64,000 bases of DNA, taken from positions 1 through 64,000 of the forward strand of contig JANXWA010000025.1 of NCBI GenBank assembly GCA_025351385.1, read 5' to 3'. Position numbers and translations under genes: made by a program. Each line of letters starts with the position of its first letter. Position 1 is the first letter of the stretch. The notes beneath the pieces were generated by a model that was not told the DNA's origin, made no database searches, and saw nothing but the letters and a program-made list of their open reading frames with translations. This document shows positions 48,825 to 53,374 of the stretch, one piece after another. The stretch is from Acidimicrobiales bacterium. Its GTDB lineage: Bacteria; Actinomycetota; Acidimicrobiia; Acidimicrobiales; RAAP-2.

Positions 48825-49451
48825 TCAGGTCAGCGTCGAAGCGCACGACCACTGGCTCCATCCGTCACGGGCGAAGAGCAGGGCGGCCGCGCGCACGTTC
48901 AGCACCGGATTGAAAGCCAGATCCAGATTGTTGGGGTCGAGGCCGAGCATCCTGAATAGGTACTGCTGCGTTCCGCCGTCGTTCAACTGGAACAGCCCCC
49001 GGTCGTGTGTGCCATTGCTGTCGTAGCCGATGTCCAAGGGATGGAACTTGGACTCGCACCATGCCACCGCCGCGGCGTCGTGCCACGCGCTCGGGGGAAA
49101 GGCACGATGGATCAAGGAGACCAGATAGCCGGACGTCGGCACGGAGGCGGAGGGAAGGGCGACGGCTTGCGCGACCGCCTGGCTGGCGACGCCTACGTTT
49201 AACGTTGATGCGGCGACGGAGCTCGCCACGGACGGTGACCTGCGCCACGCCACGTGCGACGTCGGAAGCCAACGGTGGAGACCGGTGGCCCCGAGGGTGT
49301 CGGCGAGGCGAACGACGTCGACCTGACGCACCGCGCCCGACGAGGGGAGCGTCAAGGCGAACGTCGGCACCACCAGCAGCGCCAGGGCCAGACGGGGCCA
49401 TCTCTTCGAGCCGCGCTTCGCTTCTTTGGATTGATCGTGCGTTTTGGGCAC
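48825..49451 (-). CDS. Exported lytic-transglycosylase-like (SLT) protein
   Basis: A 208-residue protein with an N-terminal signal sequence (basic residues, then LALALLVVPTFALTLPSSGA). A spacer of about 80 residues precedes an SLT/lysozyme-like domain with AVAWCESKFHPLDIGYDSN (catalytic Glu), DRGLFQLND and FNPVLNVRAAALLF. It probably cleaves or remodels peptidoglycan outside the membrane. The GTG at 49451 has an AGGC site; a GTG at 49478 would add nine residues. The 5' region is long and possibly structured. Confidence 0.8.
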   Translation of the reverse strand: MPKTHDQSKEAKRGSKRWPRLALALLVVPTFALTLPSSGAVRQVDVVRLADTLGATGLHRWLPTSHVAWRRSPSVASSVAASTLNVGVASQAVAQAVALPSASVPTSGYLVSLIHRAFPPSAWHDAAAVAWCESKFHPLDIGYDSNGTHDRGLFQLNDGGTQQYLFRMLGLDPNNLDLAFNPVLNVRAAALLFARDGWSQWSCASTLT

Positions 49452-49848
49452 AGGGGAGCCTCGCTTGGTTGCGCACACCTATTTGGTGCCGTTGAATCAG
49501 TGGGTTGCCGCGGGCCAGCGATCCGCCAGTAGGGGACCTGCCGCTTAGGCGCGCAATGTGGCGCTTAGCAAGATGCCGACGTCAAATATGACGCCGTGTA
49601 TAAAAGACCATTTTAGTTGGAGCCCACGTCTTGTGTGTCAGGTCGCGAAAACCCGCTGAATTAACCGGTTTTTGACCGCGACGTGGCCGTGAATCCAAAC
49701 GAGGGCCACCGAGGGTTGCCGCCCTCTTTGATCTTTTTCCCACACTGAAGTCGCGTCCACACGGCACGAAGTCAGCTCGGCAGCGCAACGCCACCCACCG
49801 GCCGGACGAGCCCAGAACTGACGGCTCGCCCGACCGCTCGGCGACCGG
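49452..49848. other. Intergenic region upstream of the transglycosylase
   Basis: About 400 bp, AT-richer than its surroundings between 49580 and 49740. It contains no recognisable gene. The minus-strand part nearest the transglycosylase (49470-49550) is GC-rich and could fold as an RNA leader. A TATACA box (near 49600, minus strand) may be its promoter. Confidence 0.4.
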
Positions 49849-50469
49849 CTATGCCGGCTTGTTCGTCTTCACGTCCCAACCGAAGTGCACCACCGCACCA
49901 CCCTGGGGGACGTAGTCCACCTTGATTTTTGCGAAGTTAAAGGACACCGACTCGGTGGGTCGATCCCCGCCACTGCTCATCGTGATGCCCGAGATCATTA
50001 CGTTCGACATCGTCACCGTCATGCTGTCGCCCGATGGCGCTCCCGCGGTGGAGGACGCGGGGTCCATGTACAGGATCACCGTCTTGTAGTGGGTTCCCGC
50101 CGCGCAGTTTCTGAAGAAGAGCGGCGAGGCCTTGTCGGTGACCTTCGTGACTGAGAGGTCGTGAAATGAGGCCTTACCCGAGCGCCCCGCTCCAGAGGAA
50201 CTCGACTGCGACCCAATGTTGTTGTTGATCCCCCAGGACCACGACAGCACGTCGATGTAGCCCGGACCCTTGGGCGTACCACTGCCCGTGATGCCGGGGA
50301 CGAGCAACGACGTCGTGCCACCCGCGGCGAGCGCGGACGGGCGAAGTGTCCCGGCCGAGGCCGTGAGCGTGCCCGACGCCGCCCCCACGGTGGCAAGGAT
50401 CAACGTCCCCAAAAGACAACTTCGAACAGCCAGGCGACTTCGACCGTGCAGCAATCGCTCCATTCCCAT
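49849..50469 (-). CDS. Exported Hcp-like (type VI tube-fold) protein
   Basis: A 206-residue protein with a signal peptide (basic start, then CLLGTLILATVGAASGTLTASA, cut likely near 38-40) followed by an Hcp1-family fold. The fold includes IDVLSWSWGIN, GKASFHDLSVTKVTDKASPL, THYKTVILYMDP, MTVTMSNVMISGITMSSGG and ESVSFNFAKIKVDY. In Gram-negatives Hcp forms the T6SS tube and has no signal peptide. Here no T6SS gene is near, so the fold is used in an exported role. The ATG at 50469 is preferred because GGGGGGA sits 4 nt before it. A perfect inverted repeat lies just upstream. Confidence 0.75.
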   Translation of the reverse strand: MGMERLLHGRSRLAVRSCLLGTLILATVGAASGTLTASAGTLRPSALAAGGTTSLLVPGITGSGTPKGPGYIDVLSWSWGINNNIGSQSSSSGAGRSGKASFHDLSVTKVTDKASPLFFRNCAAGTHYKTVILYMDPASSTAGAPSGDSMTVTMSNVMISGITMSSGGDRPTESVSFNFAKIKVDYVPQGGAVVHFGWDVKTNKPA

Positions 50470-50486: not shown

Positions 50487-50536
50487 TTCGGCCCACGACG
50501 GACCTGAGGCGCAGCGTAGGTCCGTCGTGGGCCGAA
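50487..50536. repeat. Perfect 19-bp inverted repeat before the Hcp-like gene
   Basis: Arms 50487-50505 (TTCGGCCCACGACGGACCT) and 50518-50536 are exact reverse complements around a 12-nt loop. The repeat begins 18 nt upstream of the Hcp-like ATG and no T-run follows on either strand. It would form a stable hairpin in the mRNA leader, or a large dyad operator in the divergent promoter shared with the MFS gene. Confidence 0.8.
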
Positions 50537-50641: not shown

Positions 50642-52279
50642 ATGATCGATCATTCGATTCGACAGACTCTCGCCGCAAGGAGTGAAGCGTCCACCGCCCC
50701 GTCCCAACATCGCCGATCGGTCATCCTGGGTGTCCTGTGCCTCACGGTGCTGATCATCAACCTCGACGGGACGATCCTCAACGTGGCCCTCCCCACGATC
50801 GTGACCTCGCTGCACGCGACGTCGAGCCAACTGCAGTGGGTCGTCGACTCGTACACCATCGTCCTGGCCGGACTCTTGCTCATCGCGGGATCCCTCGGCG
50901 ACCGCCTCGGACGCAAGCGGGTCTTCCTCGGCGGTCTCGTCCTGTTCGCCGCAGGTTCGGGCGCGTCGGCCTTCTCACACAGCCCCGATCAGTTGATCGC
51001 GGCCCGGTCGTTCATGGGCGTCGGCGCTGCGCTGATCATGCCCTCGACGCTGTCGATCCTCACGAACGTCTACACGAAGCCAACCGATCGGGCCCGGGCC
51101 ATCGGTCTGTGGTCGGGCACCAGCGGTCTCGGCCTGGCTATTGGACCAGTCGTCGGGGGATGGCTGTTGACCCACTTCTGGTGGGGATCGGTCTTCCTCA
51201 TGAACGTGCCCATCGCACTCGTGACGTGGATCGCCGCGCTCTTCGTCGTGCCCGACTCTCACAACCCTGCGGCGAAACCGATCGACCCGGTCGGTGCGGG
51301 CCTCTCGTTGGCCGGCGTGACGCTGCTGCTGTGGGGGATCATCGAGGCCCCGACGATGGGGTGGAGCTCCGTGTCGATCCTCGTCGCGCTGGCCGGGGCG
51401 TTGGCCGTGATTGGACTGTTCGCCCTTTGGGAGACCCACACGTCGCACCCGATGCTGGAGCTCTCGTTCTTCGAGTCACGTCGATTCTCGGTCGCCTCCA
51501 CGGGCCTCGGCCTCGTGCTCTTCGCGCTGTCGGGCGGACTGTTCCTCCTCACGCAGTACCTCCAGTTCTGCCTTGGCTACAGCGCGTTCCGGACTGGGCT
51601 TCTTATCGCCCCGATCGCCGCGGTCCTGGTGGTGGTGGCGTCACTGTCCAGTCTGCTCGTGCGCTCTCTCGGCACCAAGATCGTGGTCGCCACCGGCATG
51701 GGGCTGATCGCTCTCGGATTCGCACTACTGGCGACCGTCACGACACACTCGACCTACCTCGACGTCCTACCGGCCTTCTTCCTGCTCGGGATCGGGTCGG
51801 GACTGACGGTCGCCCCGTGCACCGAGTCGGTCATGGGCTCGGTGCCGATGGAGCTGGCCGGGGTCGGTTCGGCGACCAACTCGACGGCATTGCAGATCGG
51901 CGGCGCACTCGGCGTCGCGGTGCTCGGCAGCCTCCTCAACACCCGCTACCGAGACGACATGCTCTCACTGCTCACCGGCCTCGCGGCGCCCCCATCGTCA
52001 CTGCACTCAGCGATGGGCTCGCTGGGCGGTGCGCTCAACGTCGCCGGTCACATCGGCGGGGCGATCGGCGCACACCTGGCCCGCTCCGCCCGTCAGTCGT
52101 TCATCGACGCGATGACCTTCGCCGTCACCGTGGCATCGGTGTTGTCCGGCGTCGCCACCGTCTTTGTCCTCGCCCTCCTTCCGGCGAAGAGCGACTACCT
52201 CGGACCGAAGAGAGGTCGACGCGACGCCGTTCATGACGTCACGATGGAAACCTCCGGACAGTCCCGCTCAATCGAGTGA
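50642..52279 (+). CDS. MFS exporter, DHA2 (EmrB/QacA) family, 14 helices
   Basis: A 545-residue major-facilitator drug/proton antiporter. Motifs: INLDGTILNVALPTI in helix 1, GSLGDRLGRKRVFLGG between helices 2 and 3, and GPVVGGWLLTHFWWGSVFLMNVP in the helix 5-6 region typical of DHA2. Fourteen hydrophobic helices can be counted. Relatives export drugs, dyes or lipids. No TetR-type regulator adjoins it. It is divergent from the Hcp-like gene and overlaps the convergent hydrolase gene by 12 nt. Confidence 0.88.
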   Translation: MIDHSIRQTLAARSEASTAPSQHRRSVILGVLCLTVLIINLDGTILNVALPTIVTSLHATSSQLQWVVDSYTIVLAGLLLIAGSLGDRLGRKRVFLGGLVLFAAGSGASAFSHSPDQLIAARSFMGVGAALIMPSTLSILTNVYTKPTDRARAIGLWSGTSGLGLAIGPVVGGWLLTHFWWGSVFLMNVPIALVTWIAALFVVPDSHNPAAKPIDPVGAGLSLAGVTLLLWGIIEAPTMGWSSVSILVALAGALAVIGLFALWETHTSHPMLELSFFESRRFSVASTGLGLVLFALSGGLFLLTQYLQFCLGYSAFRTGLLIAPIAAVLVVVASLSSLLVRSLGTKIVVATGMGLIALGFALLATVTTHSTYLDVLPAFFLLGIGSGLTVAPCTESVMGSVPMELAGVGSATNSTALQIGGALGVAVLGSLLNTRYRDDMLSLLTGLAAPPSSLHSAMGSLGGALNVAGHIGGAIGAHLARSARQSFIDAMTFAVTVASVLSGVATVFVLALLPAKSDYLGPKRGRRDAVHDVTMETSGQSRSIE

Positions 52280-53221
52280 CGCGAGGAACGACAGCAGCGC
52301 CTCGTTCACCTCAGCGGGACGCTCCTGTTGGACCCAGTGCCCCGTCGCGGGCAACGTAACCCTGACGCGTAGGTCGGTGACCCACGCGTCCATGTGGGTG
52401 TCGGGCATGAACAGAGCGACCAGGTCCTGCGCGCCCGCGAGGAAGAGGGCCGGCATCTCAACCTTGGTCTGGGCGAGGTCCGCGGTGATCTCCCAGTTGC
52501 GACTGATGTTCCGGTACCAGTTGAGCCCTCCCGTGAAGCCAGTCCGGCGGAACTCGGCGACGTAGTAGTCGAGGTCAGCCGCGCTCAGCCACTCCGGAAG
52601 CGGGCCGGGCTCGGGCAGCCACTCGCGCCACCCCGTCCCCTCGCGCGGGATTGGGCGCAACCCCTGGGAGGTCTCGCGCACGGAGGTCGCTCGAAGGGCT
52701 CGGCGAAGGGTGTCCTCGGGGTCGCGGTCCAACTCGGCGTCGGCGACGCCCGGTTCCTGGAAATAGAGGATGTAGAAGAAGTTGTCACCGAAGGTCGCCT
52801 CCATCGAGGCGATCGGATCACGCAGACCGCGAGGCACGAACGGCACGCTGAGCGCGCCGACCGCGCGCACGCGTTCGGGGACTCGTTGCGCCAGATTCCA
52901 CACGACCGGACCGCCCCAGTCGTGGCCAATGAAGACAGCCCGCTCCTCGCCTAGGGCGTCGAGCAGGCCCAGCAGATCGTCGGTGAGGTGCACGATGTCG
53001 TACTCCTCGATCCCCTCGGGACGATCGGTCTGTCCGTAGCCGCGCTGGTCCGGGGCCACGACTCGATAACCGGCGTCGGCGAGCGCGTCAATCTGGTGGC
53101 GCCACGAGTACCAAAGCTCAGGGAAACCGTGACAGAGCACGACGAGGGGGCCATCACCCTGTTCGGCGACGTGCATCTGGATCCCGTTGGTCGCGATCAT
53201 GCGGTGCGAGGTCTGGCCCAC
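52268..53221 (-). CDS. Alpha/beta hydrolase, epoxide-hydrolase-like
   Basis: A 317-residue protein with the pattern of soluble epoxide hydrolases and haloalkane dehalogenase-like enzymes: HGFPELWYSWRHQI, APDQRGYGQTDRP, the nucleophile Asp in FIGHDWGGPVVW, a cap domain with two tyrosines, and the late HxxQ segment GHWVQQERP. Cytoplasmic. The GTG at 53221 is chosen because a TAGTGT box lies 7 nt upstream; the first ATG is at 53200. The epoxide substrate is unknown. Confidence 0.85.
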   Translation of the reverse strand: MGQTSHRMIATNGIQMHVAEQGDGPLVVLCHGFPELWYSWRHQIDALADAGYRVVAPDQRGYGQTDRPEGIEEYDIVHLTDDLLGLLDALGEERAVFIGHDWGGPVVWNLAQRVPERVRAVGALSVPFVPRGLRDPIASMEATFGDNFFYILYFQEPGVADAELDRDPEDTLRRALRATSVRETSQGLRPIPREGTGWREWLPEPGPLPEWLSAADLDYYVAEFRRTGFTGGLNWYRNISRNWEITADLAQTKVEMPALFLAGAQDLVALFMPDTHMDAWVTDLRVRVTLPATGHWVQQERPAEVNEALLSFLASLD

Positions 53222-53228
53222 GCGTTTG

Positions 53229-53234
53229 ACACTA
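53229..53234 (-). promoter_or_regulatory. Candidate -10 box of a leaderless promoter (epoxide-hydrolase-like gene)
   Basis: TAGTGT on the minus strand lies 7 nt before the GTG at 53221. Confidence 0.35.
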
Positions 53235-53374
53235 CCCACTCGCTGCGAGACCTTCGTGGGCCTAACCAATAGTCACTGTCGCAGCCCCGGCAAGATCGTT
53301 AGGATCCATTGATCATCAACTCCGGCGACGTGAGAAGGTCTCTTCGATCGCCGCGATGGGCAGGGGGTCCGACG

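What the first reader, a model, noticed from the sequence alone, without database searches (positions are those of the whole stretch)
49849..50469. Signal-peptide-bearing Hcp-like protein without a type VI system
The body reads as the Hcp tube fold, but an export signal precedes it and no T6SS genes are near. Secreted Hcp-fold rings or tubes outside an actinobacterial cell would be a distinct use of this fold, perhaps structural, adhesive or effector.
Basis: partly seen in the sequence, partly recalled or inferred. Interest (0 to 1): 0.55.

Follow-up and report, generated by a model that had tools for sequence, protein, structure and literature searches.

The report
Exported Hcp-fold protein without T6SS
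A bacterium in which no sign of the 'molecular spear' called the type VI secretion system was found makes a protein with the fold of the spear's inner tube but with an ordinary export signal, and related bacteria attach the same fold to collagen-like or threonine-rich stalks, which suggests that a weapon part has been reused as a cell-surface building block.

Summary
On the minus strand, 49849-50469 encodes a 206-residue protein with an N-terminal Sec-type signal and a full Hcp domain (PF05638, E 5e-31; nearest solved relative P. aeruginosa Hcp1; a low-confidence AlphaFold model matches Hcp1 at E 1.5e-10). The genome (97% complete) has one Hcp gene and no match to the TssC, phage-sheath, VgrG/gp5 base-V or gp19-tube profiles. 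It is not a one-off: the window's family and class hold many signal-bearing Hcp-domain proteins, some with Thr-rich tails, some with collagen-like stalks. TssC was found in 0 of 39 Hcp-bearing genomes. All 11 sampled same-phylum Hcp loci outside the class lack a signal. No gene neighbour is conserved across the family. Best reading: an Hcp domain moved into the Sec-exported surface proteome and used as a self-assembling head or ring, not for injection. Oligomer, location and function are inferred. Hcp-domain genes with PEP-CTERM sorting signals were already noted and set aside (PMC8262886, passage seen), so surface-sorted Hcp domains are not wholly unknown; I found no description of the architectures seen here.

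The parts
49849..50469 (-). CDS of the exported Hcp-domain protein, 206 aa (start read as ATG at 50469; in-frame ATGs at 50463 and 50481 are alternatives)
   Evidence: a G-rich RBS-like run lies just upstream, as in most of the 11 relatives printed
50353..50469 (-). Sec-type signal peptide, residues 1-39 (possible cleavage after residue 39 or 30; an uncleaved membrane anchor is not excluded)
   Evidence: hydropathy, charge, AxA; simple script, no SignalP available
49912..50301 (-). Hcp domain PF05638, residues 57-186
   Evidence: E 5.4e-31; Foldseek of the AF2 model to 1y12 E 1.5e-10
50487..50536 (.). perfect 19-bp inverted repeat, 12 nt between the arms, between the divergent hcp-like and MFS genes; one occurrence in the genome; role unknown, may not belong to the finding
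   Evidence: no perfect hairpin with arms of 9 or more in the 200 nt upstream of 11 relatives

Best explanation
The gene encodes a Sec-exported Hcp-fold protein that works outside the cytoplasm without any injection machine. An Hcp gene of the T6SS type, free of sheath, baseplate and effector partners, gained a signal peptide in an ancestor within this class. Since then the Hcp barrel has served as a cell-surface or cell-wall module: bare in the window protein, with Thr-rich tails or on collagen-like stalks in relatives. Most likely it self-assembles (ring, short tube or trimer) into a structural or adhesive surface element. Shown: domain and fold, signal-like N-terminus, absence of the VipB, sheath, base-V and gp19 matches, stalk and tail architectures in relatives, no partner gene conserved across the family. 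Inferred: export route, oligomer, surface location, structural or adhesive role, single origin.
For: PF05638 E 5.4e-31; phmmer to Hcp1 in the PDB 2.4e-22; AF2 model to 1y12 E 1.5e-10. Signal test 16/16 against 0/14; wider census of 57 loci: 30 scored signal-bearing, none of them among the 11 same-phylum out-of-class loci or the 6 T6SS-type references. VipB/TssC in 0 of 19 and 0 of 20 Hcp-bearing genomes; no Phage_base_V or gp19 in the 12 genomes of the window's family and order that were tested. Collagen and Hcp in one protein (L105: PF05638 1.7e-23 and PF01391 4.8e-08; L053 and L065 weaker). Thr-rich tails in L004, L005, L006, L011, L013, L031, L052. The 16 exported rows of the window's family and order lie on one side of a branch, 94/91.
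Against: No experiment and no SignalP run; the AF2 model is of low confidence (pLDDT 55.5, pTM 0.56). The window protein itself has no stalk, tail or anchor motif. Over the body it is as close to Hcps from T6SS loci (34-36%) as to the exported L043 and L044 (34, 32%). Presence is patchy (22 of 172 family genomes, the window's included), which argues against an essential structural role. Branch support 94/91 is below the starred level, the root is a midpoint for drawing only, end branches are long, and the exported forms of the wider class were not in the tree. The class and order also have signal-less Hcps (seven loci, two of them fragments: L079-L081, L089, L091-L093), so the signal may have been gained more than once. 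Most genomes are drafts, so absence of TssC counts mainly as a pattern.
Confidence: 0.6

Rival explanations
1. It is a secreted soluble effector or ligand-binding protein: a monomeric Hcp barrel released into the medium that binds a small molecule, a polymer or another cell, with no assembly.
For: No stalk, tail or anchor in the window protein and its four closest relatives L003, L040, L043, L044; no partner gene conserved across the family.
Against: Other relatives carry the domain on stalks or with Thr-rich tails, which fit a surface-displayed part better.
Confidence: 0.22
2. It is a membrane-anchored protein whose hydrophobic segment is not cleaved, with the Hcp domain on the outer face acting as a collar or chaperone.
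For: A hydrophobic segment with a basic flank also fits an uncleaved anchor; cleavage was not tested by any proper predictor.
Against: The window protein has AxA-type sites ending at 30 and 39.
Confidence: 0.1
3. It serves an unrecognised or very divergent contractile or tail-tube device in this genome.
For: Hcp is otherwise a tube protein; only four marker profiles were searched; the genome is 97% complete, in 36 contigs.
Against: No VipB, Phage_sheath_1, Phage_base_V or gp19 match; a Sec signal would send the tube subunit out unassembled; collagen fusions in relatives do not fit an injected tube (inference).
Confidence: 0.04
4. A decaying relic: a horizontally acquired Hcp gene without function.
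For: Patchy distribution; some relatives are broken or end early (G047 with stops inside; L008).
Against: The window ORF is intact; a signal-like segment is kept in all 16 proteins tested while bodies diverge to roughly 18-49% identity; new architectures recur.
Confidence: 0.04

Closest known systems
T6SS tube protein Hcp/TssD (e.g. P. aeruginosa Hcp1, PDB 1y12)
   Same: Same domain and fold; 34-36% identity over the body to five Hcps from T6SS loci
   Different: Has an export signal; no VipB, sheath, base-V or gp19 match in the genome
Hcp-domain genes with a PEP-CTERM sorting signal (mentioned and removed from a set of Gram-negative and metagenome Hcps in PMC8262886; passage seen)
   Same: PF05638 domain in a protein with a surface-sorting signal, set apart from T6SS Hcps
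   Different: The window protein has no PEP-CTERM match (only PF05638 up to E 1)
Bacterial collagen-like surface proteins (Scl/Lcl type adhesins)
   Same: Relatives such as L105 and L053 pair a collagen-like stalk with a globular domain
   Different: The globular domain is Hcp; the window protein has no collagen run; scores of L105 and L053 to Scl/Lcl models are far below cut-off
Extracellular contractile injection system tube (gp19/Afp1, PF06841; role recalled)
   Same: A tube-protein family outside T6SS
   Different: No PF06841 match in G000 or in the 11 other genomes of its family and order that were tested

Membership tests
T6SS Hcp/TssD tube protein | PF05638 domain over the curated cut-off | tested here: met
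   108 bits against 23.5
T6SS Hcp/TssD tube protein | Hcp beta-barrel fold | tested here: met
   1y12 E 1.5e-10, TM (target) 0.74; the model itself has pLDDT 55.5
T6SS Hcp/TssD tube protein | Encoded in a genome with a sheath (TssB/TssC) | tested here: not met
   VipB/TssC absent; TssB not searched separately
T6SS Hcp/TssD tube protein | VgrG spike in the genome | tested here: not met
   Phage_base_V has no match in G000
T6SS Hcp/TssD tube protein | Made in the cytoplasm without a Sec signal | tested here: not met
T6SS Hcp/TssD tube protein | TIGR03344 curated cut-off | tested here: inconclusive
   36.3 bits against 58.9; but two Hcps lying inside T6SS loci also fall short, 55.6 and 52.4, while the exported L003 passes with 60.8, so the cut-off does not discriminate
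T6SS Hcp/TssD tube protein | Hexameric ring, stackable | not testable with these tools
   No multimer prediction offered
PEP-CTERM-sorted surface protein | C-terminal PEP-CTERM (PF07589) | tested here: not met
   One search lists PF05638 only
Collagen-like surface protein | GXX repeat stalk | tested here: not met
   Longest GXX run 2 in the window protein; runs of 8-25 in relatives L009, L010, L012, L053, L085, L090
eCIS tube protein | PF06841 tube or a phage-type sheath in the genome | tested here: not met

The most novel reading that the evidence does not exclude
A class-wide family of Sec-exported Hcp proteins forms extracellular rings, tubes or trimeric heads, bare or with collagen-like stalks and Thr-rich tails, as a cell-surface structure that has nothing to do with contractile injection.
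Probability: 0.35. Interest if true: 0.7.

Novelty: new variant of a known kind. Interest (0 to 1): 0.52.

Why it matters
Hcp is treated as a hallmark of T6SS, so annotation will tend to label these proteins 'T6SS tube protein' in organisms that appear to have no T6SS. A family in which the same fold carries an export signal and sits on collagen-like stalks or has Thr-rich tails shows a route by which an injection-machine part could become a surface module, and gives a simple test of whether Hcp rings can assemble and act outside a cell.

Tried and rejected
Conserved gene neighbours. An all-against-all comparison of ORFs from 20 regions of the window's family and order (crude ORF caller, the Hcp ORF found in 18 of 20) gave eight non-Hcp clusters in three or more regions. 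Three of them come only from the orthologous locus of L057/L058/L067. Five are spread over other regions (MFS, 4; ABC-type, 4; alpha/beta-hydrolase, 3; two others, 3 each) and none is in more than 4 of 20. The alpha/beta-hydrolase is near the Hcp gene both in the window (52268-53269) and in L057/L067, in different places; I take it for chance but did not test that. MFS proteins near the Hcp genes of L064 and L068 are 28% identical to the window's, with another gene in between (whose output was partly cut). In 14 further class-level regions (L112 was fetched but not used) the locus is partly syntenic inside one genus: G786 and G872 share four genes in the same order before the Hcp gene, G786 and G885 share two (one lipoprotein-like, one PMT_2 glycosyltransferase) on either side of it. 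That is orthology within a genus; no such genes stand beside the window's gene. The SLT/lysozyme-like gene next door does not recur among the clusters.

Motif loss as a mark of export. In the 13 rows, GES/GEA and KAG/RAG are in 8 of 8 non-exported and 0 of 5 exported rows. The 8 were chosen as canonical; by eye, signal-less but divergent proteins such as L018, L021 and L024 lack both. I therefore do not use it as evidence.

Phage origin: no viral contigs relative; one unannotated 4.8-kb 'Bacteriophage sp.' record at 31% over half the query, not followed. Plasmids: 91 records match; of five stretches opened, four are annotated T6SS loci and one has no annotation, though an ORF that looks like TssC by eye lies beside its Hcp.

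L001, the only genome contigs relative, lies in a T6SS cluster (VipB 5e-123, TssF 2e-187, a ClpV-like AAA protein). Its record is titled Actinobacteria; I treat it as probably misbinned, which I did not test.

TIGR03344 below its cut-off was dropped as an argument. The hairpin as a repeat element: one occurrence in the genome.

Literature: nine searches listed no paper that by title or abstract start deals with signal-bearing or collagen-fused Hcp proteins; passages were read in PMC4793230, PMC8262886 and PMC8788690, no whole text.

Full report
What is there. On the minus strand, 49849-50469 encodes a 206-residue protein. It begins with a basic stretch, a hydrophobic stretch (residues 18-32) and AxA-type sites ending at residues 30 and 39. 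Then follows a complete Hcp domain, residues 57-186, Pfam T6SS_HCP E 5.4e-31. By sequence the nearest solved structure is P. aeruginosa Hcp1, 1y12, E 2.4e-22. An AlphaFold2 model made from the window protein and one relative is of low confidence (pLDDT 55.5, pTM 0.56), yet its best PDB match is again 1y12, E 1.5e-10, TM 0.74 by target length. A cytosolic form would have to start at TTG-55, inside the first strand; I judge that unlikely.

No type VI system found. The genome (2.18 Mb, 97% complete, 36 contigs) has one PF05638 match. There is no match to VipB/TssC, Phage_sheath_1, Phage_base_V of VgrG or gp19 tube. E. coli rang as a control for the first three. For gp19 no control genome rang, but four other genomes in the same call matched. 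TssB and the remaining T6SS subunits were not searched.

A family, not a single oddity. All tallies here include the window genome. With PF05638, 12 of 119 genomes among relatives match, 17 of 395 in the class and 8 of 396 in the phylum; the samples overlap. With a profile of the exported bodies, 22 of 172 genomes of the family match, five of them (G047, G584, G579, G024, G523) only weakly or in pieces. I scored N-termini by a simple hydropathy rule: 16 of 16 proteins of the window's family and order have a signal-like segment (1.89 or more), 14 of 14 reference Hcps do not (1.25 or less). An automatic census of 57 loci (L005/L031 and L011/L052 are near-copies from different genomes and count apart) gave 30 signal-bearing and 27 not. 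The 27 are: L007, which the script mis-parsed and which scored positive; L046 and L049, which run off their contigs; 11 of 11 same-phylum loci outside the class, from seven genomes; 6 of 6 T6SS-type references; and seven signal-less loci of the window's class or order (L079-L081, L089, L091-L093; L089 and L092 are fragments). So the signal is common in, but not universal to, this class, and was not seen outside it in this sample.

Architectures. The closest relatives (L003, L040, L043, L044; 32-48% identical over the body) have the window's plain layout. L004, L005, L006, L011, L013, L031 and L052 carry Thr-rich C-terminal tails. L009, L010, L012, L053, L085 and L090 carry collagen-like GXX runs (8 to 25 repeats) between the signal and the Hcp domain. 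The clearest is L085/L105: PF05638 1.7e-23 and Collagen 4.8e-08 in one protein. In L053 and L065 (the protein of L012) the collagen match lies under the curated cut-off, and in L053 the Hcp match too, by 0.2 bits. Such stalks and tails suggest surface-displayed proteins; they would not fit a tube inside a sheath (inference).

No machine in the relatives either. VipB/TssC was found in 0 of 19 and 0 of 20 Hcp-bearing genomes; the five weak-hit genomes named above were not tested. Phage_base_V and gp19 were tested only in the 19 genomes: 2 and 4 of them match, all out-of-class genomes whose Hcps lack a signal, which may have other contractile systems. The 12 genomes of the window's family and order among them had neither.

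Descent. In a tree of 33 Hcp domains the 12 plain or tailed and 4 collagen-type exported rows lie together on one side of a branch with support 94/91, below the starred level; the collagen type is one clade, 100/100; several end branches are very long and the root is only a midpoint. One origin of the exported form in the window's family and order is thus likely but not proven. The further class-level exported forms (L082-L088, L094-L096) were not in the tree. Over the body the window protein is no closer to the exported L043/L044 (34, 32%) than to Hcps from T6SS loci (34-36%).

Surroundings. The neighbours are an SLT/lysozyme-like protein downstream on the same strand, 370 bp away, and a divergent MFS transporter. 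No neighbour recurs in more than 4 of 20 regions of the family and order. Within one other genus of the class the locus is partly syntenic, with unrelated-looking genes and a PMT_2 glycosyltransferase. The leader holds a perfect 19-bp inverted repeat (fold z-score -4.0 for the 181-nt stretch) found once in the genome.

How it likely works. Exported by Sec, cleaved after about residue 30-39, folded outside as an Hcp barrel, and there self-assembled as a ring or small oligomer on or near the cell surface, structural or adhesive. Fold, signal-like N-terminus and absence of the searched T6SS markers are shown; the rest is inferred. I put 0.6 on a surface structural or adhesive role without injection and 0.22 on a soluble secreted binder or effector.

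Known or new. Hcp domains in surface-sorted proteins are not unheard of: PMC8262886 (passages read) removed PF05638 genes carrying PEP-CTERM signals from its set of Hcps from Gram-negatives and metagenomes before making its tree. I found no paper on signal-bearing Hcps in this lineage or on collagen-Hcp proteins (listings; the library lacks most subscription journals). I rate it a new variant of a known kind.

Noticed in passing
window 50487-50536: Perfect 19-bp inverted repeat with 12 nt between the arms, between the divergent Hcp-like and MFS genes; one occurrence in the genome, none like it upstream of 11 relatives. Operator, attenuator or RNA stabiliser is possible.
   Followed up: partly
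window 48825-49478, minus strand: SLT/lysozyme-like protein (PF18896, PF01464, both weak) with a hydrophobic N-terminal stretch by eye, just downstream of the Hcp-like gene; adjacency not found in relatives.
   Followed up: partly
L105:8003-8911, L053:1129-1944, L062:9246-10178, L065:9055-9858: Collagen-like stalk joined to an Hcp or Hcp-like domain, preceded in several by a two-Cys module 'C...G.LRL...C...E..V.W' (by eye); an architecture that deserves its own study.
   Followed up: partly
L001:7777-16797: Record titled 'Actinobacteria bacterium 21-64-8' holds a T6SS cluster (VipB, TssF, ClpV-like) beside a signal-less Hcp; probably a misbinned contig, otherwise a T6SS in an actinobacterial bin.
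   Followed up: partly
L098:5623-6012 and L098:11357-11749 (G786:C65): Two signal-bearing Hcp-domain paralogues (L082, L094) about 5.3 kb apart, the first with a PMT_2 glycosyltransferase gene nearby, as also in G885 of the same genus; G885 has three PF05638 matches, one of them signal-bearing.
   Followed up: partly
L016 and L022 (G374:C25): Two signal-less, divergent Hcps about 2.5 kb apart in a genome with no VipB, Phage_base_V or gp19 match: cytosolic Hcps without a T6SS?
   Followed up: no
H21, MT838875.1:2677-2991: A 4.8-kb unannotated 'Bacteriophage sp.' record from human stool encodes an Hcp-like stretch at 31% identity; perhaps bacterial DNA.
   Followed up: no
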